A stretch of DNA of 64,000 bases, taken from Rhodothermus bifroesti. GTDB taxonomy: Bacteria > Bacteroidota > Rhodothermia > Rhodothermales > Rhodothermaceae. The translations under genes were made by a program, and so were the position numbers. Location: NCBI RefSeq assembly GCF_017908595.1, contig NZ_JAGKTL010000001.1:372001-436000 (forward strand). Reading direction: 5' to 3'. This document shows positions 33,406 to 57,747 of the stretch, piece after piece (position 1 is the stretch's first letter; each line of letters begins with the position of its first letter). Under the pieces are notes generated by a model. It saw only the letters and a program-made list of their open reading frames with translations, did not search any database and had not been told where the DNA came from.

Positions 33406-33740
33406 TTAAGCCCTCTCCAACTTCACCAGGGTCTCGTAAAACACCACGCTCGCGCCAACCGGGTCGCTCAGTGGGGTATTCTGCAACACAGGGTCGATAC
33501 GCATAGCGGCGTTGAGGTGTGCGCCCTTTGCGCGCCGCTCGTCGGCAGGGATGCGCTGGCCGTCAATGACAATGTCGCTGGCGCCATAGGCCCAGTGCCC
33601 GTAGCCCAACGCAAAGGTCACCGTGCCTGGTCGGATGCCCTCGATCACCCTGACACGCAGAACGAGGGACTGGCGCTTTCCGTTGCCCAGATCCCATTCG
33701 CCGTCGGGGTTCGATGCCAGGCTGTTATCCGTAGCGATAG
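33406..33740 (-). pseudogene. 3' fragment of a molybdopterin oxidoreductase
   Basis: About 110 codons with no start read [20 protein letters not shown], then [19 protein letters not shown], then [20 protein letters not shown]. This is the end of the molybdopterin-dinucleotide-binding domain of a DMSO-reductase-family catalytic subunit (TtrA/PsrA-like). The frame opens abruptly near 33740 and nothing upstream continues the protein. So the rest, about 85-90% of the gene, has been lost. It forms the left edge of the accessory block. Confidence 0.75.
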
Positions 33741-34099
33741 TTTTCTACGGTTTTTAGGTTGGTGGAAGATTGCCCCTCTAGTGTAGCCCCGGCATTTTAG
33801 GTCCGCAAAGTTATAACTGACCTCCTTTGCAAAGCCGATGATGTTTGCTGCTTAGGGCGAAGGTATGGGCAAGAGGTAGCCCTGCTTCTGGAGTTAGGGT
33901 TTGGCCTTGTAGCTGACGATGGACTGCGGGTACGTTGCTTTTTGATGTTCCACAAGCCATCCGGATATGGTTCAGAGTGCCCGTGCGCTGCAGCGGACCG
34001 TGCAGTGCCATGCACCAAAACCAGTGATTCGGCGATCTGTCAATCGCCGCAAACCCGCAGGGGGCTTTCAATCGTCTCTACGCCGTGTGCGCAACTCCT
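33741..34099. other. Gene-poor gap with degenerate attC-like sequence
   Basis: No convincing gene is present. Short minus-strand frames exist but have no recognisable similarity. Around 33965-34045 the minus strand has CGCCGAATCACTGG followed by a GC-rich imperfect palindrome with CACGGTCCGCTGCAGCGCAC. This looks like a decayed attC after the neighbouring VOC gene. The rest appears to be scrambled debris. Confidence 0.35.
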
Positions 34100-34480
34100 T
34101 CAGTGAACCTGGCAAGCCTCGAGAAGATTGCCGTCGACATCACGAAAGGTGAAGTAGGTTACGCCTCCGCTATCGACCACCTGTCCGACATCCACACCAC
34201 GATCTCGCAACAGGGCCCATGTCTGACGGGCATCCACGACTGAAAAGATCGGGAACGTCCCCGCATGGTCAGAAGGGCACAGAATCTCGCCCAGCTTCAG
34301 TTCCCACAGCGTGAGGCTTGTCGTCCCACCGAGGTCGAAGACGGCAAGGCGTTCCGCCGGATCAAAATAGGGCTCAGCGAACCCAAGCTTTTCCACATAC
34401 CAGCGCTTTGCCACCTCAATGTCCTGAACACGCACAAGCACTGTGTCAAGCCCTTGAAACACATTCGCAAGTGTTGTCAT
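34100..34480 (-). CDS. VOC (glyoxalase/bleomycin-resistance fold) family protein
   Basis: The 126-residue protein starts at ATG 34480 behind AAGGAGAGACG. It has the paired beta-alpha-beta-beta-beta modules of the vicinal-oxygen-chelate fold: LDTVLVRVQDIEVAKRWYVE plus KLGFAEPYF at the N-terminus, and TYFTFRDVDGNLLEACQVH at the end. The latter carries the usual metal-ligand region. The substrate is unknown. VOC proteins are among the commonest integron cassette products, and this gene fits that context. Confidence 0.85.
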   Translation of the reverse strand: MTTLANVFQGLDTVLVRVQDIEVAKRWYVEKLGFAEPYFDPAERLAVFDLGGTTSLTLWELKLGEILCPSDHAGTFPIFSVVDARQTWALLRDRGVDVGQVVDSGGVTYFTFRDVDGNLLEACQVH

Positions 34481-34595
34481 CGTCTCTCCTTTGGGTTGCT
34501 TATTAGAGCTATTGTCACCTGTCCGCCTTTTATAGAAGGCACCACCTAAATCCCTGTTTCGGAGGGGAATGTTGTGCAATCCTCTGCATCAAAGC

Positions 34596-38060
<3,465 letters not shown>

Positions 38061-38115
38061 GGCATGCCTCCAAGTTGTATAACGATTAACACTGGCCCTT
38101 ACGCGGCCACTAGCC

Positions 38116-38970
38116 TCAAGCGACAAATCGCTCTATGGTCCTGGCCATCTCGTCGGGGACTTCGTACATCGGGAAGTGGCTCCGCGCCTGGAGCTTCACC
38201 ACCTGGAACCACGGATGCGTGTCGCTGAATGACCGCTGCGCCTCCAGATATCCCGCATCTTCCGGCTGCGCATACAGATGTAGCACCGGCACGGCAGGGT
38301 CCAGGCTGGCCAGGGCCTGAAGCGGGCTCCCAGCCTTCGCATACGCAGCAGCGATCTCTCGACCTGCACGGGCCCACATCGCAAAGGGGTACGAGCCCAT
38401 ATCCTCGCGCACAAAATGGGCCAACGCCGGAAGGTCCAGTCCCTGAAGCCACATGGAGAAGAGTCGTTCACGCACTTGCTGCCACTGGGCCGGATCCTGG
38501 AGCGCTTGCAATGCCCCAAGAAAAGGCGGCGGCGCTTCGAGGACGATCCAGTCGAGCAGCACCAGCTTGGGAATACGCGCACCCAACCGACGACGCAGCT
38601 CAATGGCAACCCAGCCGGCGTGGGACAGCGCAACTGGCACCACCCGGTCCGCCTGGCTCGCCTCGATCACAGCAAGGGCATCGTCAACGAGGCTGTCAAA
38701 TCCGAAGTCAATGTCGGGGTGTGCCTCCTCGCCCGTAAAACCACCATTGTCGGCGAGCCTGTCAAATCCCAAATCCTCGGTAGGCCTCTCCGACTCTCCA
38801 TGCCCCCGCCAGTCAAGGGCCAGCGTGCGCCTCCATCGGGCGCAGCGCCGAGTGAGTTCGGCAAAGACCCTGCGGCTAGCACACCAGCCAGGCAGGAACA
38901 GAAGTGCCGGCTCTCCCTGACCCTGGTCGTCGTAGCGGATGCGTATCCCGTGGGATTCAACCTCTGGCAT
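38116..38970 (-). CDS. Alpha/beta hydrolase-fold protein (cassette gene)
   Basis: The 284-residue protein has the alpha/beta hydrolase core. The oxyanion region is [18 protein letters not shown] near residue 28. [17 protein letters not shown] follows, then the nucleophile elbow region [21 protein letters not shown] near residue 112 in outline. The expected GxSxG is LSHAG, so Ser is present but the first Gly is replaced. [11 protein letters not shown] and a C-terminal [19 protein letters not shown] supply the Asp and His regions. The start ATG 38970 follows GGGGGGAAGC. Its 5' end is duplicated twice elsewhere in the array. Confidence 0.85.
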
Positions 38971-39008
38971 ATGCTTCCCCCCCTAGATTTGTTGAATGGT
39001 CATAAGCC

Positions 39009-39028
39009 GTCTAACATGCATGTTAGGC
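39009..39028 (-). repeat. Collapsed attC site
   Basis: On the minus strand GCCTAAC is followed by ATGC and then GTTAGAC, so both attC core half-sites are kept with only 6 nt between them. The inner 16 bp are a perfect palindrome. It overlaps the stop of the 122-residue gene, the place where an attC is expected. The structured arm has been lost. Confidence 0.6.
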
Positions 39029-39391
39029 CGCGCCCACCCACTCCGGAAGCTTGGCTTCGAACATATCGAGGAAGCGGGGAAGGTCGACGCTGGGTTCCAA
39101 GGCGACCGACACATGGCCACCCGCAACGGGAAACACACACTGGAAGAAATTACCGTAGCGAATCACAACATAGCGAAGCCCGCCGCAGTCGATGTTGCCT
39201 CGCTGCCGGACCAGCGTCAGCACGGACGGATTCACGAAGAGCTCCTCGTACTTATCTGATTCGCCCGAGCTGGCGCCTGCCAAGCCGGGCCGCTCCCGGT
39301 ACCGAAGTAACTCGTCTCTATATACAGCGACGTAGCGAACCTCAGGGCTCAACGCCAGGCAATGGTCGATTATGGCATCGTGGCTAAGCAT
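39023..39391 (-). CDS. Hypothetical cassette protein, 122 residues
   Basis: I do not recognise this protein. It is a compact soluble alpha/beta product (MLSHDAIIDHCLALSPEVRY, LEPSVDLPRFLDMFEAKLP) with no signal peptide. A Roadblock/LC7-like or small regulatory fold is possible but unproven. Start ATG 39391 has AAAGGTGG 4 nt upstream. Its stop TAA lies within the following attC core, a typical cassette arrangement. Confidence 0.65.
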   Translation of the reverse strand: MLSHDAIIDHCLALSPEVRYVAVYRDELLRYRERPGLAGASSGESDKYEELFVNPSVLTLVRQRGNIDCGGLRYVVIRYGNFFQCVFPVAGGHVSVALEPSVDLPRFLDMFEAKLPEWVGAA

Positions 39392-39407
39392 CGGCCACCT
39401 TTCTGCG

Positions 39408-39465
39408 GTCTAACCTCCGATTCAGCGGCGGGCGCATGCGCGTCTGCTGCAGCACCTTGTTCGGT
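39408..39465 (-). repeat. attC recombination site
   Basis: In minus orientation the R'' half is ACCGAAC and the R' half is GTTAGAC, 58 bp overall. Between them lies an imperfect palindrome (GCTGCAGCAGACGCGCATGC / GCCCGCCGCTGAATC). It separates the chimeric hydrolase gene from the 122-residue gene, as expected for cassettes. Confidence 0.75.
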
Positions 39466-39492
39466 ACGAAAAGCGACCACCCATCCGAGGCC

Positions 39493-39741
39493 TTACCCGA
39501 GTTGTACGTTATGCTCACGAATGATGACTGGCAGTTGACTCATGTCAAACTCCAAGTTGTACCGCTGCGCAAGTGCTATCACCGCCTGCATATCTGGTAG
39601 GCCATCAGGTGGGAACAGGGCTGCCAGTTCGGCAAAGACCCTGCGGCTAGCACACCAGCCAGGCAGGAACAGAAGTGCCGGCTCTCCCTGACCCTGGTCG
39701 TCGTAGCGGATGCGTATCCCGTGGGATGGAACGTCTGGCAT
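39493..39741 (-). pseudogene. Chimeric cassette ORF: alpha/beta hydrolase N-terminus joined to an unrelated (cupin-like) tail
   Basis: The first 40 residues ([35 protein letters not shown]) match the hydrolase at 38116-38970. Of these, 102 nt (39626-39727) are identical to 38855-38956. After FAEL the sequence changes to FPPDGLPDMQAVIALAQR and ends REHNVQLG, which looks like the C-terminus of a cupin-domain protein. The ORF is open and has a strong ribosome site (GAGGAGGG), but the fusion lacks a complete domain of either parent. Function is unlikely unless the peptide itself is useful. Confidence 0.7.
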
Positions 39742-39924
39742 GTGCCCTCCTCTTTCTCAAGACGCCGACCCCATCGTCTAGCAGCAAAGTATCTTTTTTT
39801 AACTTAACATGCAAGCTCTTTTTTTAAAGGATCTTAACTAACTATTCAAGTATTTTGGAGAAGTTATAGAATCGCCACCGAACACGTACAGGTCATTGCC
39901 CACTGCCCCCGACTGAACTTTTGA

Positions 39925-39987
39925 CACCTCGACCGCTACAATTCAGCTGCGGTGTGCAGCACCACCTGCTGCATGCTGTTGTCAGGC
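39925..39987 (-). repeat. Probable degenerate attC
   Basis: After the frameshifted VOC gene the minus strand reads GCCTGAC, then a CAGCATGCAGCAGGTGGTGC / CACACCGCAGCTG imperfect palindrome. The R'' half has one mismatch to RYYYAAC, and the opposite R' half is not clear. Confidence 0.4.
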
Positions 39988-40355
39988 GTTCTTGCTCGAT
40001 GGTTCTATGAAACGCAACTGGTTACCGTCGGGGTCGGTGATGATCATGTTGCGGAAGCCGAGGTCGTTGTTCGGGGCTTCGGCTACGCTCCCCCTCGCTC
40101 CCGAAACTCACTGTACCACGCATCCACGTCTGGAATCACAAAGTAGACTAACCCACCCACTTGGCAATCGCCGCTGTGCTGCGTCAAGTAGATCTGCATG
40201 CCATCACAAACGATGGACATGAAGGCTGGAATGTGAGGCCCAAAGCGGTGCTCCCATTCCACAGTAAAACCGAGCCTCTCGATGCAATACGCCTTGCTGC
40301 GCTCATAATCTGTGATCCGCAGGGCAGGGACGACACGCTGTTTGGGCAACTTCAT
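39982..40355 (-). pseudogene. VOC / bleomycin-resistance-like gene with one frameshift
   Basis: The 90-residue open part (PALRITDYERSKAYCIERLG, LTQHSGDCQVGGLVYFVIPD) is the VOC dioxygenase/bleomycin-binding fold. It stops at ERGGA within a run of G's near 40090. In the next frame the expected ending follows at once: EAPNNDLGFRNMIITDPDGN and FIEPSSKNA, with a stop at 39982. One indel in a GGGGG tract therefore breaks the gene. Start ATG 40355 has GAGGTGAATTC upstream. A sequencing error is possible. Confidence 0.75.
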
Positions 40356-40397
40356 GAATTCACCTCGCGATTTGCTTTCTGTGGCCTAACGACTGGC

Positions 40398-40471
40398 GCC
40401 TAACCCGCGCGCCGAGGCGCTGGCGTTGTAGCACGGCAGTGTCGCGCGTCGGGTTCACGCGCGGGTTAGGC
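40398..40471 (-). repeat. attC recombination site with an extra tandem core site
   Basis: The minus strand has GCCTAAC-CCGCGCGTG at one end and CGCGCGG-GTTAGGC at the other, a near-perfect textbook attC of 74 bp. A second GTTAGGC follows 14 nt further (40384-40390). It joins the 251-residue membrane-protein gene to the VOC gene. Confidence 0.9.
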
Positions 40472-40542
40472 GGCCCCTGTTGAAACGCTGGTGCGGTTGA
40501 AACAAGGCAAGACTCCGAAGCCGCAACAAAGCTCACGTGCGG

Positions 40543-41298
40543 CTAGCCAAGCAGCCCGGTCGCCCACCGCGCGAACACGAGCCAGCCCTCAGTATTCGAC
40601 ACGACGAGCCGAAGGGGCTGTGAAACGATGATAAGCAAGCCTCCCCACAGGGTGACCGGATGCAGCCGGCCGCGTGCGTAGAAATCCCAGATCGCCAGCG
40701 CTAACACGAACACGTCCGTTAGAGCGAAGAACGCAGGCAGGCCCAAGGGACCTACGCCCGGCCAACGCGCGATAGCGGCGGTGACCAGGTTAACGGTGGC
40801 AAGCAACATCCACCGCTTGTGGGTTTGGGGGTTTCGCCGCTGAGCAATCCCCAGCCATGTGAATGCTGCGAACAAGGCGATGTCGAATAACGGGGTGGCG
40901 AGGAACTGAAGCGGTGGAGTAGAAATGCCCACAAAACCCGTAGGGCGACGAGCAGCGATCAGCGCCCCTAGCGTGCCAAGCACGACCATCGCAGCGGCCA
41001 GTACGACGCTGAAGGGGCCGATCTTGCGATGCAGGCTGGTTCGTCTGCTTGCGACGAGTGAGGTCTGTACGACCAAAAGCACGATCCACGCGGTGAACAC
41101 TGCGCCATGCACATAGAAGATTGTCTCGGGGGGCGAAGGCCAACCCGGGAATAGCGGCCGCAAGAAGAAGCTAGGTGTGAAGCCGACGATGACCGTTGCC
41201 AGGATTGCAAGCGCCATCCCCGTAAAGAAGCGGTGCTCGGCCGATGCGCGCCTGGAGGATGCCATCCCTGTTGCTATTGATTCCTCCTTTGTGTCCAT
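40543..41298 (-). CDS. Hypothetical seven-helix membrane protein (cassette gene)
   Basis: The 251-residue integral membrane protein has about seven hydrophobic segments (MALAILATVIVGFTPSFFL, FTAWIVLLVVQTSLVA, VVLAAAMVVLGTLGALIAA, LFDIALFAAFTWLGIA, and others). His residues lie in FYVHGAVFTAW and TSLHRKIGP, and KRWMLLATVNL is further on. The layout is reminiscent of small haem-type membrane proteins such as the DUF2306 group, but I cannot assign a family. ATG 41298 has GGAGGACATC upstream. A well-formed attC follows the gene. Confidence 0.7.
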   Translation of the reverse strand: MDTKEESIATGMASSRRASAEHRFFTGMALAILATVIVGFTPSFFLRPLFPGWPSPPETIFYVHGAVFTAWIVLLVVQTSLVASRRTSLHRKIGPFSVVLAAAMVVLGTLGALIAARRPTGFVGISTPPLQFLATPLFDIALFAAFTWLGIAQRRNPQTHKRWMLLATVNLVTAAIARWPGVGPLGLPAFFALTDVFVLALAIWDFYARGRLHPVTLWGGLLIIVSQPLRLVVSNTEGWLVFARWATGLLG

Positions 41299-41356
41299 GA
41301 TGTCCTCCGTTGGTTTATAATCGGGATGCCATCACTGTTGCCATTGATTCCTCCTT
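41257..41356 (+). repeat. 33-bp near-perfect direct repeat spanning a gene start
   Basis: 41257-41289 and 41324-41356 match at 31 of 33 positions. On the coding strand each reads AAGGAGGAATCAAT, then GCAACAG, then GATGGCATCC. The upstream copy has AAGGAGGAATCA directly before an ATG. In the copy inside the gene that ATG has become ATA. The repeat looks like a short duplication that displaced the original start. Confidence 0.75.
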
Positions 41357-41705
41357 CCTTGTCCAGGGCGCATGTAGACGCGGTCAGCATTGGCATACAC
41401 GGCGCAAACCACGGCCTTCCCGCTGTGCACAATGGCCGCCTGGTTGACCCCAGCCCTAGAGTTACCACGCCACGAGGCCTCGATGCTCGGCAAGACGAAG
41501 GGACAGGCGACCTCGCCCTCTCCCACCAGCGCTCCAGGTTCGGACAACGCTCCCAGATGCGGCGGGATAGCGTCGGGTGGCGAAAGCGGCATCGAGCGCC
41601 GCACCGAAAAGCGACAAGCACACCTGCTCCACGTAGGCTGCCCAGTCCTGAGCACGCGCTCCCCAGAGTTGATCTTGAATTGTTACGCTCCCCAAGAGTA
41701 TTCCT
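41330..41705 (-). pseudogene. Internally deleted SAM methyltransferase gene
   Basis: The 5' part reads TIQDQLWGARAQDWAAYVEQ, the typical start of small class I methyltransferases, and runs to about ALDAAFATRR. The 3' part in another frame reads FVLPSIEASWRGNSRAGVNQ and AAIVHSGKAVVCAVYANADR, a typical end of the same family. The SAM-binding core between them is missing, and the halves are out of frame. GGAGGAATACTC precedes a possible TTG start near 41700. Confidence 0.65.
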
Positions 41706-41794
41706 CCTTGCATGCTAAAGGCACGCGCATCCCCCACCGTGAGCCAAGCGGAGCGAGGAGGGCAGTTGGGCGCATGCGCTGATCGGGCGACGTT

Positions 41795-42586: not shown

Positions 42587-42765
42587 CCTTCAATCTCCTG
42601 ACACACCGATCTCCCTAGGGATTATTTTGGGCCTAGGCAAAGACTCCAGACCCGATTCAACCAATTTTGCCGGGATCCCAGCACGCGATAGCCAGAACAC
42701 TGGCTCGCCCAGACTGCCTGCGGGAAATCCGTGTGACATGTAAATGGCGCGGAAAACTCGTTCGG

Positions 42766-46107: not shown

Positions 46108-46119
46108 CGCCAATCGAGA

Positions 46120-47184: not shown

Positions 47185-47202
47185 CGTCTACCTCTAAGAA
47201 TT

Positions 47203-47261: not shown

Positions 47262-47352
47262 CGCGACCTATCATGGCGCTTTCCGGTGAGGAGACCACAA
47301 TCCGGACCTGACAATCCGCCTAGCGGTTAGAGCCTCCAGTCGCTGTCTCCGC

Positions 47353-47865: not shown

Positions 47866-47871
47866 TAGCCC

Positions 47872-50028: not shown

Positions 50029-50144
50029 AGGGTACCTCGTCAGTTGGATCCATCTTTTTCTTGGACCTTTGCGACTTCGTGGTCCGGCACGGGTTTGAGG
50101 GCACATTAGCTAGTATCACGCATTAGCGCCCTACGGCAGGCGCT

Positions 50145-50666
50145 TTAGCTGCAGCGCAGAGCAAAGCGGAGCAGCGGCGTGTGCATCCGCTGTAATCCAA
50201 TAGCAATCCGCTCGAGCTCTTCGATGGCACCATCCCCAGCGCGCTCTGGCAGGAGCGCGCTTCTTCCCAATCTGAGCTGCTTCGCCAGCCAGAGTGAACC
50301 ATATGGATGCGTGTTCCCGAAGTTTCAGACACAAACGACCACCATATGCGTCAAGGGATCGGGACCGTTGGCGAAGGTCCTGAACCGCTTTGGAAGGCGC
50401 CATTGGAATGCAAAAAGCTGGTTTGCCTCGATCGCAGTGATCCGACAACCGATCGTGCTGTTGTTTTCACGGGCGGTTGGCTCCCAGAACAGTTCGTATT
50501 TTCCACTGACCTTCGGATCTACTTCGGCAGCCGCAGTAAGCCATTCGGTCAAAAGATCGGCCCTGGTGAAGTATTCGAACGCACGTGCTGGCGGGACAGA
50601 GAGAAGCGCGTTCACATAAATCACGCGGTCTGTAACTGGGGCGATCAAACTACGGCTGGGGTTCAT
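50145..50666 (-). pseudogene. AHSA1/SRPBCC-family gene with multiple frameshifts
   Basis: The open part reads TDRVIYVNALLSVPPARAFE, then TRADLLTEWL and KYELFWEP, an Activator-of-Hsp90-like SRPBCC domain. It leaves frame at THMVVV. Continuations appear in the other frames: GTRIHMVHSGWRSSSDWEEA, then DGAIEELERIAIGLQRMH and TPLLRFALRCS before a stop at 50145. At least two indels are needed to rebuild the protein. It lies immediately upstream of the copper ATPase. Confidence 0.7.
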
Positions 50667-50745
50667 GGACTTTTTCTGTGTAGTCGAGCACGTAACCAAT
50701 GGCATCCAGGAGAACAACATCGCATGGCGTGCCTCTCTCTACGAC

Positions 50746-50850
50746 GCTCGACTGGTTTCCACATAAAACGCATGTACCTTTGTCGGTCGGCATAACGGCC
50801 TGCCGACAGCTTCATGGGCTTGTCAGCCAACATCCGCGTTTCAGCTCATG
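50746..50850 (-). repeat. attC-like remnant related to the site at 51.55 kb
   Basis: The minus strand contains GTCGGCAGGCCGTTATGCCG, a strong hairpin. Then comes ACCGACAAAGGTACATGCGT and TTTATGTGGAAACC. The run TTATGCCGAC, GACA and TTATGTGG recurs in the 51529-51615 site, so the two ends of the 204-residue gene cassette carry homologous elements. Core half-sites are degenerate. Confidence 0.45.
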
Positions 50851-50893
50851 GAACTCCACCTGCGGATCACTTGAACACGACCGGCCCCCAAAG

Positions 50894-51508
50894 TCACTCG
50901 TGAAGATCCAGACCACCTCCCGCGACAACGTGCGCTATGATCGGGAGCAGCAACAGCAACGCTGCGGCGTGAATCCACACTACGCGCGCCCACCTCGGTC
51001 TCTTCTCAGGAGCTTCCCGTCCTAACGGGGTCAGGCCCCGGGGCTTGTATACGTTCAAGGTAGCGATCCCGAGTAATATTACCAACCCGACGCCGGCATG
51101 AAGTAGTTCTCCCTGCAGCGCAGGGTACAAGACGTCGCGAACGTTCGTAATCGCCGTGTCAGCAGCGATGGCTGCAACCGGCGTAACCACCGACGACATG
51201 TGCTGCAGTAACACAGTCACCGCAACCAGCGTAAGGTGCCAGGAAACGACGACCCAATAGTGTCGAAACAGTCCCCAGGGGGTGGCGAGCGAGATGGTAA
51301 TCCCGGTGATCAAGGCAGATAAAGCGAGTGGCACGATAACGTACGACCCAATCACCCCCAGCGCGATCCACGCAGCGCGCAGGAGCTGATCAGACGGGTC
51401 CATCATAGCGGCTATGACGAGCGCAAGATAGGCGAGGGCTGCCCCAATCCACCCCACGGAGACAGTAATGTGCGTTGTGAGAAGAAGCTTTCGAACCTTT
51501 CGATCCAT
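50894..51508 (-). CDS. Hypothetical membrane protein, DUF2269-like (cassette gene)
   Basis: The 204-residue protein has five hydrophobic segments (ITVSVGWIGAALAYLALVIA, IALGVIGSYVIVPLALSALI, HYWVVVSWHLTLVAVTVLLQ, LLHAGVGLVILLGIATLNVY, and a C-terminal one). Conserved His residues in LLTTHITVS, FRHYWVVVSWH, WIHAAAL and IAHVVAG could bind haem. The look is that of predicted membrane proteins of the DUF2269 kind, without certainty. ATG 51508 has AGGAGGCGGCG upstream, right after GTTAGCC of an attC. Confidence 0.65.
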   Translation of the reverse strand: MDRKVRKLLLTTHITVSVGWIGAALAYLALVIAAMMDPSDQLLRAAWIALGVIGSYVIVPLALSALITGITISLATPWGLFRHYWVVVSWHLTLVAVTVLLQHMSSVVTPVAAIAADTAITNVRDVLYPALQGELLHAGVGLVILLGIATLNVYKPRGLTPLGREAPEKRPRWARVVWIHAAALLLLLPIIAHVVAGGGLDLHE

Positions 51509-51528
51509 CGCCGCCTCCTGCGAATGCT

Positions 51529-51615
51529 GGCTAACTATTGTTTATATGGGTTCCCACATAAGACGCCTACACCGCTGTCTGTCGGCATAAGACGCTATGT
51601 GGGTAAGCTGTTAAG
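51529..51615 (-). repeat. attC (or attI-like) site downstream of the integrase remnant
   Basis: In minus orientation it opens with ACTTAAC and closes with GTTAGCC, 87 bp. The arms CCCACATAGCGTC and GGCGTCTTATGTGGG pair across a loop with TGCCGACAGACAGCGG. It follows the integrase C-terminal remnant by about 90 nt and precedes the next gene by 20 nt. It resembles the element near 50.8 kb. Confidence 0.6.
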
Positions 51616-51701
51616 TTCTTTGATTCCAACATCTTCAACCTGTTCCTTTACGCCTTCGGGTTCTTGTACAGTTTAAGCATAACATGCCATCATTGTCTGG
51701 G

Positions 51702-51794
51702 TTACAACGTGTCAATCAGACTATGGAGACTTTTCCCGCCACGGTTCAGAAGGTGCGTATAAATAATGGTTGTCTGCACGTCTTTGTGTCCTAA
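51702..51794 (-). pseudogene. C-terminal remnant of an integron integrase (IntI)
   Basis: Thirty codons and a stop read LGHKDVQTTIIYTHLLNRGG then KSLHSLIDTL. This is the conserved end of IntI tyrosine recombinases (LGHxDVxTTMIYTHVL). It includes the nucleophile Tyr and the residues after it. It begins exactly at TTAGGACAC of an attC core (GTTAGGA), and nothing upstream continues the protein. The catalytic Arg/His residues and the IntI-specific insert are missing, so it cannot be active. It is on the same strand as the cassette genes. Confidence 0.85.
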
Positions 51795-51847
51795 CGGCTC
51801 GGATTCAGCCGCACGCGGAGCGTGTCGGCTACAACCCGTTGTTAGCC
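51789..51847 (-). repeat. attC recombination site fused to the integrase remnant
   Basis: R'' is GGCTAAC and R' is GTTAGGA, with GTTGTAGCCGACACGCTCCG and CGTGCGGCTGAATCCGAGCC pairing between them. It follows the ABC permease gene by 10 nt. The R' core doubles as the first codons (Leu-Gly) of the IntI C-terminal remnant. Confidence 0.88.
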
Positions 51848-51853
51848 CGCCCG

Positions 51854-52642
51854 TTAGTATGTGTGATCTGCCAGCTCCCACCAGACAAGTGTTCCTATCA
51901 ATCCAACAAGACTCGTAACAATCACAATCACGTAACTGATCCCTCCAAGATCTGCATACTGTGGACCGGCCATCCCAGCATATAGTGCTGGCACACACCA
52001 GGGGAAATACTCACCCCATCCTGCTGCGGCGACCACTTGTGCTAGCACTACGGCGAGTATCGCCGCGCCCAGCGCCGGCAGATAGCCAGGCCCTGTGCTC
52101 GCGAAGAAAGATACAGGGGTGGTGACGGCAATCGTCAAACATGCCGTAACCACTATGGTGATTGTACCTTGCCGAAATACTTGTGCTGATGCAGCCGGAA
52201 GGGCAATGGCTGCGCCAACACCGAGACCGATGAGGTATATGAGTGCTACCAAAATTGTTGACCACAGGATAAAAACGACGAATTTGGCAAGCACGATGGT
52301 GGAGCGCGATGTGGGCAACGCAAGCAAGTCTGTGATCGTGTGGTCTGAATACTCTCGACCAAAGATCCAACTGCACACGAACGCAAACACCATAAAGCCG
52401 CCGACCGCAGTCGCCTGAGCAAGAAATCCCAGGTAGGTTTGCCAATCGGCAGAACCCGCCAGAATCTGGGCTTTTGCACTAATGATTCCCATACGGCGGG
52501 CCAGGTCGGGATCTTTCATGACAATCATAAAAAAGCCACCTGCAAATGGAGCCAACGAGAAACCCAAAGCAGTCAGTAAGGGCATCTTGGAACGGCGTGC
52601 TTTCAGTAGTTCTACCCCAATGGCTTGTGTGATGTTACTCAT
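51854..52642 (-). CDS. ABC-2 type transporter permease
   Basis: This 262-residue membrane subunit of an ABC exporter starts at ATG 52642 (MSNITQAIGVELLKARRSKM), overlapping the ATPase gene by 8 nt. It has six hydrophobic segments. The N-terminal cytoplasmic helix IGVELLKARRSKMPLLTALG and SWIFGREYSDHTITDLLALP near residue 95 are typical of ABC-2/BcrB-like permeases. The substrate is unknown; drug, peptide or lipid export are possibilities. It is the second gene of a two-gene cassette closed by an attC. Confidence 0.85.
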   Translation of the reverse strand: MSNITQAIGVELLKARRSKMPLLTALGFSLAPFAGGFFMIVMKDPDLARRMGIISAKAQILAGSADWQTYLGFLAQATAVGGFMVFAFVCSWIFGREYSDHTITDLLALPTSRSTIVLAKFVVFILWSTILVALIYLIGLGVGAAIALPAASAQVFRQGTITIVVTACLTIAVTTPVSFFASTGPGYLPALGAAILAVVLAQVVAAAGWGEYFPWCVPALYAGMAGPQYADLGGISYVIVIVTSLVGLIGTLVWWELADHTY

Positions 52643-53576
52643 AGTACTCTTGATTTGGCTGCCGACTGTCCACACCGACGAGTCGCAAAAAATAATCTTC
52701 CAGATCTTCTTCTTCGACGTTGAGCATCGTCGGTGCGTGCCCTGCATTGACCAATAACGTTGCTACGTCATCTGGCCGCTCAAGTGCAATACCGTCTTTC
52801 ACCTCAATTACGTTGTTGGGCATAAGTGTTGCCGAAAATCCTGCGCCAACAAGTACGGCGAGCGCCGCTTTACAATCACGCGTTCGAACCAGCAGCCGTC
52901 GCCGCCGGTTGCGCTCCAATTCAGCCGCATCAAGTTCCTGAATCAAACGACCTTGATGAATAATGCCAATCCGATGCGCTAGCCGCGATACTTCCGCGAG
53001 AATGTGGCTTGACATGAAAACAGTAACCCCCTGCTCTCGCACGAGTGTAAGCAACAGTTCCCGTATTTCAACAATTCCCGCCGGATCCAGTCCATTGGCT
53101 GGTTCGTCCAGGATGAGTAGTTTGGGATTGTGCAATAGTGCCTTGGCAAGCCCTAGACGCTGCCGATTGCCGAGCGATAGTGTGCCAGCGCGCCGGTCAG
53201 CATAGGCAGTCAAACCTAAAAGCTCAATGACCCGCTCAACAGCCTTCGGCTCAATACCAGGACGGAGACGACGCATCGCTTCCAGGTTTTCGCGTACAGA
53301 AAGCTCTGGATATGCAGCTGCTGTCTCAACCAAATAGCCGACGGAATCCCATGGCTTCCTGCTGCCAATTCGAATTCTTTCTCCCAACACCCACACTTCG
53401 CCAGCAGTGGGTTTGACCAATCCAAGCAACATACGAATGGTCGTTGTCTTGCCTGCGCCATTTAGACCAAGGAACGCATAAATTTCACCCGGAGCAACAC
53501 GCAAGGATAATCCGTCTACGGCGATTACATCACCGTATCGTTTCGTCAGGTTGTTGGTCTCGATGGCTGCACGCAT
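52635..53576 (-). CDS. ABC transporter ATP-binding protein (CcmA/BcrA-like)
   Basis: The 313-residue ATPase pairs with the overlapping permease gene. It has Walker A FLGLNGAGKTTTIRMLLG near residue 37, a slightly divergent signature LSLGNRQRLGLAKAL, Walker B LLILDEPANGLDPAG, and the H-loop MSSHIL. The last 90 residues form a regulatory extension (CKAALAVLVGAGFSATLMPN) as in BcrA-type exporters. The signature has LSLGN in place of LSGGQ, which is tolerated in this subfamily. The gene starts about 100 nt after an attC core. Confidence 0.92.
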   Translation of the reverse strand: MRAAIETNNLTKRYGDVIAVDGLSLRVAPGEIYAFLGLNGAGKTTTIRMLLGLVKPTAGEVWVLGERIRIGSRKPWDSVGYLVETAAAYPELSVRENLEAMRRLRPGIEPKAVERVIELLGLTAYADRRAGTLSLGNRQRLGLAKALLHNPKLLILDEPANGLDPAGIVEIRELLLTLVREQGVTVFMSSHILAEVSRLAHRIGIIHQGRLIQELDAAELERNRRRRLLVRTRDCKAALAVLVGAGFSATLMPNNVIEVKDGIALERPDDVATLLVNAGHAPTMLNVEEEDLEDYFLRLVGVDSRQPNQEYYE

Positions 53577-53679
53577 TCTGTCCTGAAGAATGCTGTTAAT
53601 TTATTGGGGATCATAATTTTCGGGCCAAAGGTCTTGAGATGAGTCGCCGGGCCGGCCCAAGGCTAGTATCGTAGGAATT

Positions 53680-53761
53680 GGCTAACCTGGACTGACCGGG
53701 CGGCTCCATCGGGTTGTTTGACGTGCGGCAGTTCATGGTGCTTGGTGATCGGCTGTTAGGT
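53680..53761 (-). repeat. attC recombination site
   Basis: R'' is ACCTAAC, which includes the stop codon of the isoprenylcysteine methyltransferase-like gene, and R' is GTTAGCC, 82 bp. Inner sequence GCCGATCACCAAGCACCATG / GGAGCCGCCCGGTCAGTCC is only weakly palindromic. Confidence 0.75.
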
Positions 53762-54379
53762 GTCTTTGGCTGGCCATTTGGGCTCTCGGCGGAAGCGTGG
53801 GAGGATACGACCGGTTCGTGTGCAGTACTCATGATACTGGTCGCCAAACTGCTCGAGCATCATGTTCTCCTCCTTTGGGACTCTAACACAGTAGAGAAGC
53901 AAGAATGCAAGGAGGCCGCCGAGTCCTGCGATCCAGTTCTGCACAAGGAATGCTTGGGACAAGCCAAAGAGGAACTGGGAAGCGTACATGGGATGGCGGA
54001 TCGACGCGTAGATACCCTCTGTGACAAGTCGATGGCCAGCACTGAGCTCCAAAGAGGGTGACCAATACACACCGAGGTCATGGTGTGCTCGCCAGAAGAG
54101 CCATAGCCCGGCCGTGAGGATGAGGACACCCACGACTCCGAGGACTGTCGTGACGGAGGCCGGGAAGGGGTAGTCCGCGAAAGCCAGCCAGTCAGTTAGT
54201 GCGTAAATGACTGGCAAGACCAGCCCACCAAGAGTCAGAACCCCGAGGACGAGCTGCTCGGAGGCGGTGGTTTGCTTTCGGACCTTCTTAAGCTTACGGG
54301 CACGCGCCGCATAGGGAGCCCGGATGATCAACTGCGCGAGAATCCCGCTGAAGTAAACTACAGTGAGTGCAGACTTCAT
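53756..54379 (-). CDS. Isoprenylcysteine carboxyl methyltransferase (ICMT)-like membrane protein
   Basis: The 207-residue integral membrane methyltransferase belongs to the ICMT/PEMT-like family. Start ATG 54379 (MKSALTVVYFSG) is preferred; a GTG at 54397 directly against the attC is the alternative. It has four or five membrane segments. The family motifs are GHRLVTEGIYASIRHPMYAS near residue 125 and EENMMLEQFGDQYHEYCTRT near residue 175. The RHPxY and EExxL...YxxY elements bind SAM in the family. The substrate in bacteria is usually unknown. Confidence 0.85.
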   Translation of the reverse strand: MKSALTVVYFSGILAQLIIRAPYAARARKLKKVRKQTTASEQLVLGVLTLGGLVLPVIYALTDWLAFADYPFPASVTTVLGVVGVLILTAGLWLFWRAHHDLGVYWSPSLELSAGHRLVTEGIYASIRHPMYASQFLFGLSQAFLVQNWIAGLGGLLAFLLLYCVRVPKEENMMLEQFGDQYHEYCTRTGRILPRFRREPKWPAKDT

Positions 54380-54396
54380 GATCTGTTGCTTATACA

Positions 54397-54470
54397 CACC
54401 TAATGCTCAGCATCAGCGGCAGCGCATCGCGCCGTCCGCTGCATGCTAGAGTACATGTCTTTAGTTGGAC
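54397..54470 (-). repeat. attC recombination site
   Basis: The minus strand starts GTCCAAC and ends CATTAGGTG, so the R' half has one change from GTTRRRY. Arms are ACTCTAGCATGCAGCGGACG and GCTGCCGCTGATGCTGAG. It lies between the reductase and ICMT-like genes. About 130 nt after the reductase stop precede it without a gene. Confidence 0.7.
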
Positions 54471-54608
54471 TTGCAAGCTCTGTTCCGCTGCATGCCGTCG
54501 CTAGTTGCTGACTAGGCCCATCGCGACAACGCCTTCAGGGCCGCAAGCCACGCTACCAGCGCCGCCGCAGGACGAATGTAGCTGAGGCGCACCCACTCCA
54601 GCACCTTG

Positions 54609-55226
54609 CTAGCTGGCACGATCATTTGACCCCGCCTTGCGCACTGGGTAGCGTAGGTGGGTTACGCCAATGCCAGCGATAACCCTCGGACTGCCCAGGA
54701 CGGCTGGCGCGTCCGCGAGGTGGTCAAAGAGTCGAACTCCAGAACCAAGAAGGAGTGCCGCGATATCGACACGGATTGCGTCGAGCAAGCCAGCGTTCAG
54801 TAGCTGCTGGATGGTGTCAGCGCCGTGGACTCCTACGGACTTCCCGCCGGCAGCAGCTTTCGCTTGCTTTACGGCACTTTCGATGCCGTCGGTCACGAAG
54901 TGAACGTTCGGGTTGGGTCGCGGCCATCCGGCAGGGATATGGTGGGTAAGCACGAATGCCGGCCCCCACGCGTGATTGCCACCCCAGCCTTCGGCTTTGT
55001 CGAACGTGCGGCGGCCGGTGAGCACGGCGCCAAGCTCTGACCAGAGAGCGCGTAGGTGCTCGGCGCTCGGTGCGGAGACCTTGAACGTCATGGGGTCTGC
55101 CCCTCCGGCGTGGAATGCGACGTCCCCAGAGTTGAAGTACCAGTCGAACACTTCGGTCACCCCATCGTTGAGGTCGGCGACGTAGCCATCAAGCGACATG
55201 GACATGATTGCGACCACCTTTGACAT
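54609..55226 (-). CDS. RibD C-terminal / dihydrofolate reductase-like domain protein
   Basis: The 205-residue protein has the RibD-C fold. The N-terminal VVAIMSMSLDGYVADLNDG is the family signature in which the substrate-binding Asp-Gly occurs. LGAVLTGRRTFDKAEGW and the NADPH-region VGVHGADTIQQLLNAGLLD are also typical, followed by the C-terminal LLGSGVRLFDH. It probably reduces a small heterocycle using NADPH. ATG 55226 has GGGAGGATCGTA upstream. RibD-C proteins are frequent integron cassette products. Confidence 0.88.
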   Translation of the reverse strand: MSKVVAIMSMSLDGYVADLNDGVTEVFDWYFNSGDVAFHAGGADPMTFKVSAPSAEHLRALWSELGAVLTGRRTFDKAEGWGGNHAWGPAFVLTHHIPAGWPRPNPNVHFVTDGIESAVKQAKAAAGGKSVGVHGADTIQQLLNAGLLDAIRVDIAALLLGSGVRLFDHLADAPAVLGSPRVIAGIGVTHLRYPVRKAGSNDRAS

Positions 55227-55239
55227 TACGATCCTCCCG

Positions 55240-55291
55240 CGTTAACCCGCGCGCCGCTTGCGGTGCGTCGGCGTTGAACGGATTGTTGGGC
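55240..55291 (-). repeat. attC recombination site
   Basis: The minus strand has GCCCAAC-AATCCGTTCAACGC at one end and GCGCGCGG-GTTAACG at the other, 52 bp. The R' half deviates slightly. The stem pairs GCCGACGCACCGC with GCGGCGCGC. It follows the methyltransferase gene at 55374 by about 80 nt. Confidence 0.75.
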
Positions 55292-55373
55292 GACTTCAAT
55301 GGCGGTCGCGCCGCCGTTATGGCACCCGCTGGCGCCGCAGGCTGCGAAGGACGTGAGTGGTCGTCACTGTTGC

Positions 55374-56198
55374 TCACGCGGGCTTAAGGAACACGCCTTG
55401 AACGTACACGATCCGCCCGTCACGCAAGGCACGGCTGGAGTTGCCACGCTTCTCGGCATGTCGCTCGCCGAGCACTAGGTGCATGCCAAGCGGAGGCAGT
55501 GTGCCTGCTGGCGGTCGGTTGGCGTCCTCCCAGGCAAGTACAGTCGCAGAGACATCCCGGAATGTGTGTTCCTTCAGGCCTAATGTACCCAGCAGCATCC
55601 GCAGATCTTCCGGTGGAATCAGGTGGCTCTGGTCCGCTTCGCTGGCCCAGGGTACGGGAAACTCAAGCGGCTGTCCGTTGCCGGCACAGATGTCCTGAAA
55701 AACGAACTGTCCCCCGGCTCGCAGGACGCGCGCGATTTCGCCGTAAAACTGGCGCTTCTCAGCAATGTTCATCTGTACCTGAATCGTCCACACGCAGTCG
55801 AACATGCCTTCATCGAACGGCAGCGCCAACGCATTTCCTTGCCGAAATCGGGTCCGCTCCGCTAGGCGCGTGAGTCGGGAAAGCTCGGTGGCCACGATAC
55901 AAAACTCGGGCATGAGATCAATACCGGTGACATCACAGCCGTACGTCGCGGCGAGAAACCGTGCCGGGCCACCCAAGCCGCTGCCCACGTCAAGCACTCG
56001 TGATCCGGGCTTGAGGGCGGCGAGCGCGGCGAGGTCCTTCGTAGCATGGCGCCCGGCCGAGTGAAACTCATCGGCCGGCGCGAGATCATCCACCGTCGGT
56101 GCGCTAGGGTCCTTGCCCGCCTCGCGCAAACCAGCGACGATGCGATCGAGCAATCCCACAGCACGGTAGTGAGCTTGAACGGAATGTTCATAAGTCAT
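55374..56198 (-). CDS. UbiE/Coq5-like class I SAM methyltransferase
   Basis: The 274-residue protein has motif I RVLDVGSGLGGPARFLAATY near residue 70, motif II VTGIDLMPEFCIVATELSRL, and FDCVWTIQVQMNIAEKRQFY. It has the general form of glycine/sarcosine and sterol-type methyltransferases of the UbiE group (conserved LAxLxPGSRVLDVGSG with a preceding helical lid). The substrate is not deducible. ATG 56198 has GGGAGGTGTCATC directly after the attC core, the cleanest cassette structure in the window. Confidence 0.85.
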   Translation of the reverse strand: MTYEHSVQAHYRAVGLLDRIVAGLREAGKDPSAPTVDDLAPADEFHSAGRHATKDLAALAALKPGSRVLDVGSGLGGPARFLAATYGCDVTGIDLMPEFCIVATELSRLTRLAERTRFRQGNALALPFDEGMFDCVWTIQVQMNIAEKRQFYGEIARVLRAGGQFVFQDICAGNGQPLEFPVPWASEADQSHLIPPEDLRMLLGTLGLKEHTFRDVSATVLAWEDANRPPAGTLPPLGMHLVLGERHAEKRGNSSRALRDGRIVYVQGVFLKPA

Positions 56199-56218
56199 GA
56201 TGACACCTCCCTTCTGTC

Positions 56219-56294
56219 GCCCAACGGCGCGGCGGTTGAGCTGCGCTGGCGGAGGCGCGCAGCGGACCCCGTCTGCTGCAGCCGGTGGTTAGAC
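56219..56294 (-). repeat. attC recombination site
   Basis: R'' is GTCTAAC and R' is GTTGGGC, 76 bp. Arms CACCGGCTGCAGCAGACGGG / CTCCGCCAGCGCAGCTCAACC pair imperfectly with extrahelical bases. It lies between the PhnB-like VOC gene (11 nt) and the methyltransferase gene (20 nt). Confidence 0.9.
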
Positions 56295-56304
56295 CGCCAC
56301 CTTC

Positions 56305-56787
56305 TCACCCCCGCCACGCGGCGTCGATGGCGGCGTGGTCGATCTTCTTCATCGTCAGCATCGCCGCGAAGGCGCGCTTGGCCTCCTCGCCACCCGCGGC
56401 AAGAGCCTCGGTGAGCGTGCGCGGGGTGATCTGCCAGTTCACACCCCAGCGGTCTTTGCACCAACCGCACTCGCTCTCCTGCCCACCGTTGCCAACGATC
56501 GCATTCCAGTAGCGGTCGGTTTCTTCCTGCGTGTCGGTGGCGATCTGGAACGAGAAGGCCTCGGTGTGCGGGAAGGCAGGCCCGCCGTTCAGACCGATGC
56601 AGGGGATGCCGCAGACGGTGAAATGGACGACCAATACATCGCCCGCCTTGCCCGAGGGATAGTCGGCGGGCGCGCGCAAGACGGCTGTCACCTCGCTGTC
56701 GGGAAAGATCGAAGCATAAAATCGTGCAGCTTCCTCGGCCTCTCGGTCGTACCAAATGCAAATCGTGTTCTTTGCGACGTGTGTCAT
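56305..56787 (-). CDS. PhnB-like VOC family protein
   Basis: The 160-residue protein has the PhnB-type VOC fold. NTICIWYDREAEEAARFYAS opens it, GDVLVVHFTVCGIPCIGLNG is in the middle, and WNAIVGNGGQESECGWCKDR with WGVNWQITPRTLTEALAAGG are the diagnostic C-terminal parts. The annotation '3-demethylubiquinone-9 3-methyltransferase' used for this family in databases is misleading. ATG 56787 has AAAGGG upstream. It is a typical single-gene cassette with an attC downstream. Confidence 0.88.
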   Translation of the reverse strand: MTHVAKNTICIWYDREAEEAARFYASIFPDSEVTAVLRAPADYPSGKAGDVLVVHFTVCGIPCIGLNGGPAFPHTEAFSFQIATDTQEETDRYWNAIVGNGGQESECGWCKDRWGVNWQITPRTLTEALAAGGEEAKRAFAAMLTMKKIDHAAIDAAWRG

Positions 56788-56808
56788 ATTGTTTTTCCCT
56801 TTACATGT

Positions 56809-56849
56809 TTAGCTATCAGCGCGTAGGTAATGGCTCTTGCGTGTTAGAC
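56809..56849 (-). repeat. Probable short attC
   Basis: GTCTAAC is followed by ACGCAAGAGCCATTACCTAC and GCGCTGATAGCTAAAC, with an imperfect palindrome in between. The R' half (AGCTAAAC) is degenerate. It lies between the broken hydrolase and the PhnB-like gene. Confidence 0.45.
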
Positions 56850-57000
56850 AGAGATGGTTTTCCGGGTTAGGCATGAGGGGAGCGCGTATCCGATAATCCT
56901 GAGCCAACGTCCTTTTGAGGAATCCGAGGAGCTTCTAGCTACCGAATTCAGGATCGTCCACCACACCGCCCGCGCCGTGAATGAACAGTATTTCTCGCAT
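56850..57000 (-). pseudogene. Truncated alpha/beta hydrolase (RBBP9/YdeN-like) 5' fragment with in-frame stop
   Basis: ATG 57000 with a strong ribosome site (GGAGGTGAT, 57004-57012) opens MREILFIHGAGGVVDDPEFG, then a TAG at 56935. The frame continues LLGFLKRTLAQDYRIRAPLM and PNPENHL. This is the N-terminus of a small alpha/beta hydrolase with the HGAG oxyanion motif. The sequence stops at GTCTAAC, an attC core, so the catalytic Ser, Asp and His are gone. It is a doubly disabled cassette. Confidence 0.75.
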
Positions 57001-57062
57001 AAGATCACCTCCAGCCTGTGTTGCGGTCCAGTGACATAGATTCGTTCCATGTTAGGTACCAT

Positions 57063-57329
57063 TTAAGCCGGCGGAAGGCTCGTACGCGGTGGGCCTTGGC
57101 CATCAAGCCACCGCGCAACCTTGGAGTCGGTTCCGGCCACGTCCGGCACTTCCGCAATCTTGTCGATCACGGCATCCATCTGCGCCACATCCTCCCCTTC
57201 CACGATCGCAACGACATCCGGAGAACCGAAGAGCGCATCCGCATGGATCACCCCTGGAAGCTGCCGAACGGCGCGGAGAACCTTCTTGGGCTGCCGCGTA
57301 GTGATAAAGACGTAAGCCCAGATCTTCAT
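57063..57329 (-). CDS. Lrp/AsnC ligand-binding-domain (stand-alone RAM) protein
   Basis: The 88-residue protein is a single ferredoxin-like RAM domain without a helix-turn-helix. MKIWAYVFITTRQPKKVLRA opens it, and VIHADALFGSPDVVAIVEGE with IAEVPDVAGTDSKVARWLD follow, as in the effector domain of Lrp/AsnC regulators. Its start lies 14 nt inside from the GTTAAG edge of repeat copy 2, making it the first cassette gene next to the putative platform. An attC-like GTTAGGT follows at 57051. Confidence 0.8.
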   Translation of the reverse strand: MKIWAYVFITTRQPKKVLRAVRQLPGVIHADALFGSPDVVAIVEGEDVAQMDAVIDKIAEVPDVAGTDSKVARWLDGQGPPRTSLPPA

Positions 57330-57342
57330 AAGTACCCCACTT

Positions 57343-57747
57343 AACGTCTAAGTCGTTACCAGAGAAGGGAATTGCCTCCTAAAGAAGCTGCCATATGCTT
57401 TACCGACATCGCTCAGGCAGCTCACAACCTTGTCACCTTCAGCAATCTGGTTTCGATTAGGCGATGGCTGGGCGTAGCCTTCCGCACAGCCTATGTATAC
57501 ACCTTTGCCTCTACTCTGTTGGTAGCGTACATCTTTACAGTTTAGCTATCAAGTTCTTTTTTTACAGATTAACTTATGGATTATTTTCATGAAGTTAGCC
57601 TCTAACCCGCAACGATCTGTACTTATATCCTTTTAACATTGTTTGCTCTCCAACACTTCCATTTTCAGAAAAGCCTTGCGGTAAGATGACCTGGCAGTAG
57701 CGTTCGGCTTATCCAATCCAAATAAGCAATTCCCTCTTGACACAAGG
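57343..57747. repeat. 405-bp perfect direct repeat, copy 2 (candidate attI platform)
   Basis: It is identical to 47461-47865. On the minus strand the cassette-side edge CTTAGACGTTAAG leads straight into the first cassette gene. The opposite edge carries TTGACA (57737-57742), pointing toward the mer operon. Inside, GTTAGCCTCTAAC forms a small palindrome. On the minus strand TTGATA-N17-TACGCT could be a promoter reading into the cassettes. The copies lie 9,882 bp apart. Confidence 0.9.

What the first reader, a model, noticed from the sequence alone, without database searches (positions are those of the whole stretch)
33406..57343. A 24-kb integron cassette array without an integrase gene (CALIN)
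At least eleven attC-like sites with R'' RYYYAAC and R' GTTRRRY halves around imperfect palindromes separate small co-directional genes. The clearest are 40398-40471, 46047-46107, 51789-51847 and 56219-56294. All genes are minus strand, start within tens of nt of the R' core, and often end inside the R'' core. No intact integrase is in the window. This is the structure called CALIN (cluster of attC sites lacking integrase). Such arrays are rarely discussed in thermophilic Bacteroidota/Rhodothermota, the likely host.
Basis: partly seen in the sequence, partly recalled or inferred. Interest (0 to 1): 0.8.

Follow-up and report, generated by a model that had tools for sequence, protein, structure and literature searches.

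The report
Decayed integron with split integrase gene
A bacterium, probably a heat-loving Rhodothermus, carries the fossil of a gene-capturing device, an integron, in which the gene for the capturing enzyme survives only as a stump joined exactly at the enzyme's own cutting point, hinting that the device may have disabled itself.

Summary
The cassette array is real. A covariance model built here from 35 attC sites of intI-bearing contigs finds five attC sites at E<0.05, all minus strand, at 39.4-54.5 kb. A whole-genome search with it, which scored only part of its first-look candidates, finds no others. "Eleven" is not supported site by site; further sites are degenerate. No attC support exists for 33.4-39.0 kb. 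The array and a mer-type operon form a ~27-kb insertion absent from 6 of 6 congeners. No integrase over the curated cut-off exists in the genome. (1) The attC at 51789-51847 is fused, at its G^TTAGGAC crossover point and in frame, to the last 30 codons of an integron integrase (LGHKDVQTT...*), best explained by integrase-mediated recombination at a core inside an integrase gene. (2) An identical 408-bp repeat (47458-47865, 57340-57747) ends at a G^TTAAG core before each half of the array; it may be a duplicated attI. By the minimal rule this is a CALIN, in two clusters plus one single site: a decayed integron, not a new kind of element. Self-inactivation of intI is the most novel reading: plausible, not proven.

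The parts
33088..60508 (.). Acquired insertion (island): cassette array plus mer-type operon, absent from the same site in 6 of 6 congeners
   Evidence: Flank homology ends at window 33073-33087 and resumes at 60509-60613 in all six; the gap in the relatives is about 0.15-0.6 kb
57340..57747 (-). Direct repeat copy 2, ends in GACG^TTAAG directly before the first cassette gene; candidate attI
   Evidence: 408 nt 100% identical to copy 1; attI role inferred
47458..47865 (-). Direct repeat copy 1, follows the metal P-type ATPase gene and ends in GACG^TTAAG; candidate second attI
   Evidence: attI role inferred
57063..57329 (-). First cassette gene, 88 aa, Lrp/AsnC ligand-binding domain, start codon 11 nt after the GTTAA core
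   Evidence: spacing read
56305..56787 (-). Cassette gene, 3-dmu-9_3-mt family
56219..56294 (-). Weak attC (R1 E=2.6)
55374..56198 (-). Cassette gene, SAM methyltransferase
55223..55291 (-). Degenerate attC (R1 E=3.2)
54609..55226 (-). Cassette gene, RibD_C family
54398..54451 (-). attC with good L''/L' arms; crossover G reads A (ATTAGGT)
   Evidence: R1 E=0.021; arm pattern, 2 matches in the window against 0.03 expected, one of them here
53756..54397 (-). Cassette gene, isoprenylcysteine methyltransferase family
51854..53576 (-). Two-gene ABC transporter (ATPase 52635-53576, permease 51854-52747)
   Evidence: 75% and 67% identical homologues in order relative G016, with an attC about 0.8 kb upstream of the ATPase gene there and another open frame between
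51789..51847 (-). Best attC of the window; the bases after its crossover G are the start of the integrase stump
   Evidence: R1 35.6 bits, E=2e-5; DNA fold z=-2.7
51702..51794 (-). 3' stump of an integron integrase gene, 30 codons and stop: LGHKDVQTTIIYTHLLNRGGKSLHSLIDTL*
   Evidence: TIGR02249 positions 284-315 at 51705-51800; sequence; 43-81% identical over 21-32 aa to 9 of the 11 ORFs extracted from order relatives' loci (the other two ORFs, L007 and L014, were not the integrase frame)
50894..51508 (-). 204-aa membrane-like protein, cassette-like position
   Evidence: no Pfam hit
47872..50106 (-). P-type ATPase (E1-E2), ends just before repeat copy 1
46120..47184 (-). Methyltransferase cassette gene, followed by a significant attC
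46047..46107 (-). attC
   Evidence: R1 E=0.005; fold z=-1.3 only
45725..45997 (-). SCO4226-like cassette gene
45076..45564 (-). Bacterial-like globin gene
   Evidence: 72% identical homologue in G234 with no attC hit at E<=1 in the 17 kb around it
40384..40471 (-). attC with two alternative R' cores (40398-40404 and 40384-40390)
   Evidence: R1 E=7.6e-5; fold z=-4.9
39408..39465 (-). attC
   Evidence: R1 E=1.3e-4; fold z=-0.9 only
39023..39391 (-). 122-aa cassette gene, start 16 nt after attC; relative (49%) in G016
39009..39028 (-). Minimal palindrome GCCTAACATGCATGTTAGAC, possibly an attC that lost its middle
   Evidence: R1 E=1.1; overlaps the stop codon of 39023-39391

Best explanation
This is a decayed integron: a cassette array of CALIN type, acquired on a ~27-kb island that also holds a mer-type operon, without a working integrase. 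SHOWN: significant attC sites on one strand, co-directional genes, an empty site in all six congeners, no integrase over the curated cut-off in the genome, and an intI 3' stump fused in frame to an attC at the crossover point. INFERRED: while IntI was active it took up cassettes at an attI, possibly inside the 408-bp repeat. It then recombined an attC with an R'-like core (G^TTAGGA) that lies in its own gene where Leu-Gly-His of LLGHKDV is encoded as TTA GGA CAC. This split intI and left the array without an enzyme. In the usual layout (recalled; borne out) intI and cassettes run in opposite directions, so such an event would invert the stretch between them and place the intI 3' end in line behind the cassettes, as seen; a cassette insertion into intI would give the same junction. 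The 5' part of intI was later lost, and the sites began to decay.
For: attC: with shuffle and left-flank controls. Genome-wide the same five sites are the only hits in G000 at E<=1 (150 of 1151 first-look candidates scored). No integrase over the TIGR02249 cut-off in the genome. Stump and junction. Of 7 genomes (of 394 in the phylum) that carry the string GTTRGGNCAY..., the other 6 continue upstream as a tyrosine-recombinase frame, and only G000 has an attC there. A GTTR core at this Leu codon occurs in other integrase genes: 3 of 101 motif matches (some genes counted twice in overlapping loci), and L163, L164, L166. Empty site in 6 of 6 congeners. Inversions by integron integrase at GTT secondary sites are documented (PMC10127599, passages). 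attI1-aadB-attI1 was excised at 100% frequency by IntI1 (PMC12901181, passages); if the repeats here are attI, their survival fits an inactive system.
Against: No 5' part of intI was found: the other matches lie in two frames of 320 and 326 aa, so neither an inversion nor an insertion can be reconstructed. The stump is only 30 codons, and its TIGR02249 score (29.2 bits) is far below the cut-off (265). The attI role of the repeat rests only on its end point; it matches nothing in plasmids or in the fetched loci, and no promoter-like site was found in 57300-57900. Only five sites are significant over 15 kb, and two of them fold little better than shuffles. The segment 33.4-39.0 kb (a 1176-aa protein and a glyoxalase) shows no attC.
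Confidence: 0.8

Rival explanations
1. Capture rather than suicide: the 3' piece of some other intI was excised between its internal core and a downstream attC-like site (51529-51616), travelled as a cassette, and was inserted here behind the ABC-transporter cassette.
For: The stump is followed by a hairpin with R''/R'-like ends at 51529-51616 (fold z=-1.4) and a gene 20 nt later, so it sits in a cassette-sized unit; no 5' intI part was found.
Against: The hairpin at 51529-51616 was not reported by R1 at E<=10; no donor intI was found in the genome. Both routes still need recombination at the core inside an intI.
Confidence: 0.3
2. No platform ever stood here: cassettes were placed in a genomic island by an integrase acting in trans at secondary (attG-like) sites, and the stump came along by chance.
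For: 0 of the 7 genomes of the genus has an integrase over the cut-off; attG integration is mentioned in PMC12901181 (passages).
Against: Cassettes run in one direction, two identical repeats end at cores, and the stump joins at the exact crossover base; congeners G003 and G004 carry other intI 5' fragments, so integrons have visited the genus.
Confidence: 0.12
3. Chance palindromes between ordinary operon genes.
For: Many genes are ordinary enzymes; only 5 sites are significant, and two of them fold little better than shuffles (39408-39465 z=-0.94, 46047-46107 z=-1.31). A first simple grammar showed no strand excess. The ABC pair keeps its order in G016.
Against: Shuffle, strand and flank controls; the arm pattern has 2 matches against 0.03 expected; otherwise only single-gene matches in the class (two candidates a genome scored).
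Confidence: 0.02
4. The 408-bp repeat is an unrelated mobile or regulatory repeat, not attI.
For: It carries a short inverted repeat near its ends (GAGGGAATTGC / GCAATTCCCTTC, by reading) and has no match elsewhere.
Against: Both copies end precisely at G^TTAAG before cassette DNA; no target-site duplication is seen by reading.
Confidence: 0.35

Closest known systems
CALIN (cluster of attC sites lacking integron integrase; definition seen in PMC9024848, passages)
   Same: At least two attC sites, co-directional cassettes, no integrase gene nearby
   Different: Retains an integrase 3' stump fused to an attC, and a duplicated core-ended repeat; sites are sparse (two clusters by a 4-kb rule) and decayed
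Integrons of the same order (for example Salinibacter ruber M1, named in PMC9024848; order relatives G011, G016, G028, G037 here)
   Same: attC type recombination sites; integrases over the cut-off in 14 of 40 genomes
   Different: 23 of 26 attC hits at E<=1 in the 20 loci (25 hits in order relatives, 1 in a congener) are 107-135 nt long; the five of the window are 54-88 nt, which suggests cassettes from another source. Against this, G016 also has attC of 64 and 72 nt, and R1 was built from sites of 54-76 nt
attI-ORF-attI and delta-attI-type cassettes of class 1 and 2 integrons (PMC12901181, passages)
   Same: A gene followed by an attI (or piece of one) instead of an attC, with a second attI upstream
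   Different: Here the attI nature of the 408-bp repeat is not proven, and 9.9 kb with many genes separates the copies
Off-target inversions by IntI1 at GTTRRRY-like sites (PMC10127599, passages)
   Same: Integrase recombining a GTT core outside the array
   Different: There the targets lay in a plasmid transfer region; here it would be an integrase gene itself

Membership tests
CALIN | At least two attC sites by a covariance model | tested here: met
   Five at E<0.05 with R1, not IntegronFinder's own model
CALIN | Neighbouring attC within 4 kb (recalled clustering rule) | tested here: met
   51789-51847 with 54398-54451, and 39408-39465 with 40384-40471; 46047-46107 stands alone
CALIN | No integron integrase gene nearby | tested here: met
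   0 matches over the TIGR02249 cut-off in the genome; only a stump
Complete integron | Intact intI | tested here: not met
Complete integron | attI site | tested here: inconclusive
   Core-ended 408-bp repeat; no known attI compared
Complete integron | Pc promoter before the first cassette | tested here: inconclusive
   No sigma-70-type site in 57300-57900; shuffles give 1.0; promoters of this host may differ
attC site | R''/R' cores pairing, L''/L' arms with extrahelical base | tested here: met
   Alignments for five sites, with mismatches in the R and L arms of several; 54398-54451 lacks the crossover G
attC site | Recombination by IntI in the cell | not testable with these tools
   Needs an excision assay

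The most novel reading that the evidence does not exclude
Integron self-inactivation: when the second leucine of the conserved LLGH motif is encoded TTA or TTG after a G, intI carries an R'-like core (G^TTRGGNCAY) in its own reading frame. IntI can recombine an attC into that core, by insertion or by inversion of the array, which splits its own gene at the fixed crossover and freezes the array. This would be a built-in, sequence-predictable route from integron to CALIN.
Probability: 0.45. Interest if true: 0.65.

Novelty: new member of a known kind. Interest (0 to 1): 0.42.

Why it matters
CALINs are about as common as complete integrons in a genome survey (2961 against 2760, PMC9024848 passages) and were proposed there to be degraded integrons. 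Here a possible cause of the loss is visible at base resolution, because the scar in intI coincides with the enzyme's own crossover point. That turns 'degraded integron' into a testable route and predicts which intI genes are at risk from one codon. The locus also adds a probably thermophilic genus to the hosts of cassette arrays, placed next to mercury- and metal-transport genes.

Tried and rejected
First hand-written attC grammar with fold z-scores: no excess on the array strand (5 on each strand in the array). It was replaced by a trained scheme and a covariance model.

Rfam at gathering scores gave nothing in the window; tRNA or tmRNA as an insertion target gave none in the window.

Origin of the 408-bp repeat: no match in plasmids with words of 11, in the fetched loci, or, in the genus search that included it, in another species. 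Single-strand folding of the repeat is unremarkable (z=-0.27).

Plasmid origin of the array: megablast against 72,556 plasmids gives 34 records; the 20 listed all match only the 3-dmu gene (56304-56787) at 75-80% identity, mostly in Sinorhizobium and Azospirillum.

Papers: 'Rhodothermus' with 'integron' gave 6 papers (listing). I saw passages of one, PMC10295459; those shown do not place an integron in Rhodothermus. Searches for an integrase gene split by a cassette gave 1 and 0 papers; the one was PMC10127599 (passages). This is a narrow search of open-licence papers, so I do not claim that such a scar is absent from print. The paper that introduced attG sites was not seen, only mentions of it.

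R1 bias: the model was trained on sites of 54-76 nt and could miss long attC; it still found 107-135 nt ones in order relatives. Its E-values are rough by the tool's own statement.

Training set: 47 candidate sites became 43 after de-duplication. I gave the 35 highest-ranked to the alignment and dropped the 8 lowest, among them two opposite-strand duplicates. The 35 were not checked one by one against published attC.

Full report
Setting. The window is bases 372001-436000 of contig 1 of a 2.88-Mb genome in 8 contigs. Six other species of its genus are held; one of them has a main contig of 3,261,604 bases, which is, from recall, the length of the Rhodothermus marinus DSM 4252 chromosome. The genus is therefore taken as Rhodothermus; no call names it.

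Are the attC sites real? Eighty named contigs that encode a relative of the integron integrases of the order were fetched. A trained scoring scheme learned attC sites from them; 119 of the 146 sites in the 40 rows printed lie on the strand opposite to intI, as the standard layout demands. On the array's minus strand it gives 3 sites at score 26 or more against 0.05 in shuffles, and 8 at 18 or more against 0.85, although three of the 8 are not at plausible cassette ends or lie in the integrase stump. The opposite strand has 3 at 18 or more against 0.90 (all three at places where the minus strand also scores), and the left 33.4 kb is near the chance level. A covariance model from 35 of these sites, run without filters on the whole window, gives five hits at E<0.05, all minus strand, at 39.4-54.5 kb. 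In a whole-genome search the same five are the only hits at E<=1 in the genome (150 of 1151 first-look candidates were scored), and 2 of 6 congeners have one hit each. Further sites (53624-53722 at E=0.84, 39009-39028 at about 1, 56219-56294 at 2.6, 55223-55291 at 3.2) are degenerate, and one significant site (54398-54451) has lost the crossover G. Three of the five fold better than nearly all shuffles; two do not.

Gene content. I took 23 minus-strand frames between 34.1 and 57.3 kb as genes, by size and Pfam matches; overlapping plus-strand frames exist but were not tested. They include methyltransferases, glyoxalase-like proteins, a globin, a RibD_C protein, DUF1326 and PpoB2 proteins, an ABC transporter and a P-type ATPase. 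Several look damaged or partial by reading. A 120-bp start of an alpha/beta hydrolase gene occurs at 38855-38974 and, 97% identical, at 39626-39745 as the start of a shorter frame.

Acquisition. In 6 of 6 congeners the sequence that flanks the island on the left (to about 33087) and on the right (from about 60509) is separated by only about 0.15-0.6 kb. In the one congener read for genes (G001) that gap holds a 131-aa frame, cupin-like by reading. Among the genomes held, the 27-kb insertion is therefore particular to this species. It also holds a mer-type operon at 57.8-60.5 kb: an ArsR-family regulator, a MerT/HMA protein and an HMA-flavoprotein disulphide reductase. At DNA level 64 of 244 genomes of the class (own included) have matches at E<=1e-20; outside G000 they are to single genes or pieces, most of the listed ones to the P-type ATPase. 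That search scored two candidate stretches a genome, so it cannot exclude weaker shared order. One order relative (G016) has counterparts of the ABC transporter, same order but 2.6 kb apart (75% and 67% protein identity), and of the 122-aa gene (49%) within 20 kb. One strong attC (40.6 bits) lies about 0.8 kb upstream of the ATPase gene there, with another frame between. That fits cassettes that travel, but one attC is thin evidence. The globin homologue in G234 has no attC near it.

The integrase scar. The genome has no integrase over the curated cut-off. The TIGR02249 model rings on any tyrosine recombinase, in 14 of 14 control genomes, so weak hits alone mean little. One weak hit (29.2 bits), however, matches model positions 284-315 and lies in the array. 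Its protein, LGHKDVQTTIIYTHLLNRGGKSLHSLIDTL* (30 codons), has an integron-type tail (NRGG...D.L) and aligns to 9 of the 11 ORFs extracted from order relatives' loci with 43-81% identity over 21-32 residues; the two others were not integrase frames. Its first codon, TTA, is the TT that follows the crossover G of the best attC of the window. The join is in frame with the natural LLGH context, in which a codon ending in G followed by TTA GGA CAC would contain G^TTAGGA. Of 394 genomes of the phylum, 7 hold the degenerate string GTTRGGNCAY...; in the other 6 a recombinase frame continues upstream (by reading, L163, L164 and L166 integron type, L162 a damaged one, L160 and L161 other kinds), and only this genome has an attC there. 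Among the fetched loci 3 of 101 motif matches have GTTA or GTTG at this place, so the core is uncommon but not peculiar to this genome. The simplest account is that integrase activity itself joined attC to intI. Whether this was an inversion, an insertion into intI, or the capture of an intI piece as a cassette cannot be told, because the 5' part was not found.

The repeat. A 408-bp sequence stands twice, identical, 9.9 kb apart, once beside the mer-type operon and once behind the P-type ATPase gene. Each copy ends at GACG^TTAAG, after which array DNA begins. This is what a duplicated attI could look like, possibly made by homologous recombination between two platforms or by an attI-ended cassette of the kind described for class 1 and 2 integrons (PMC12901181, passages). 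There attI1-aadB-attI1 was excised at 100% frequency under IntI1, so the survival of both copies would fit an array without active integrase. The repeat has no relative in what was searched, so this stays an inference.

Relation to known systems. By definition the array is a CALIN. The order has integrases over the cut-off in 14 of 40 genomes searched, but 23 of 26 attC hits in the loci are 107-135 nt long against 54-88 nt here, which suggests that the cassettes came from elsewhere. Against this, G016 also has attC of 64 and 72 nt, and the model was trained on short sites. Congeners G003 and G004 keep 5' fragments of other integrases at other loci. Off-target recombination by IntI1 at GTT cores is documented (PMC10127599, passages).

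Verdict. The CALIN call is right and in itself ordinary. What deserves attention is the base-exact scar in intI, which makes a self-inactivation route to CALINs testable.

Noticed in passing
38855-38974, 39626-39745, 44684-44803: The first 120 bp of an alpha/beta hydrolase gene occur again at the start of a shorter frame (97%) and as a weaker copy (61%); gene starts seem to be duplicated without the rest of the gene.
   Followed up: partly
51540-51610 and 50640-50800: Two similar gene starts (MPTDxGxxVLCGN, small CxxC protein), one apparently complete at about 46 codons and one truncated just behind the integrase stump; seen by reading only.
   Followed up: no
L055 8596-8659 and 9653-9835; L054 7307-7721: Two congeners keep 5' fragments of integron integrases at other loci; in L055 a weak attC-like site (E=0.36) lies 1 kb away on the opposite strand.
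   Followed up: partly
L158 (G006 contig 13) 192-261 and 925-1048: Two attC-like sites (E=0.00027 and 0.014) on a 6.4-kb contig of another congener, a possible second CALIN in the genus.
   Followed up: no
57799-60468: mer-type operon (ArsR-family regulator, MerT/HMA protein, HMA-flavoprotein disulphide reductase) divergent from the array and directly beside repeat copy 2.
   Followed up: partly
34596-38126: 1176-aa protein with DUF11 repeats and a FlgD-type/sorting-like C-terminus inside the island, without a supported attC on either side.
   Followed up: no
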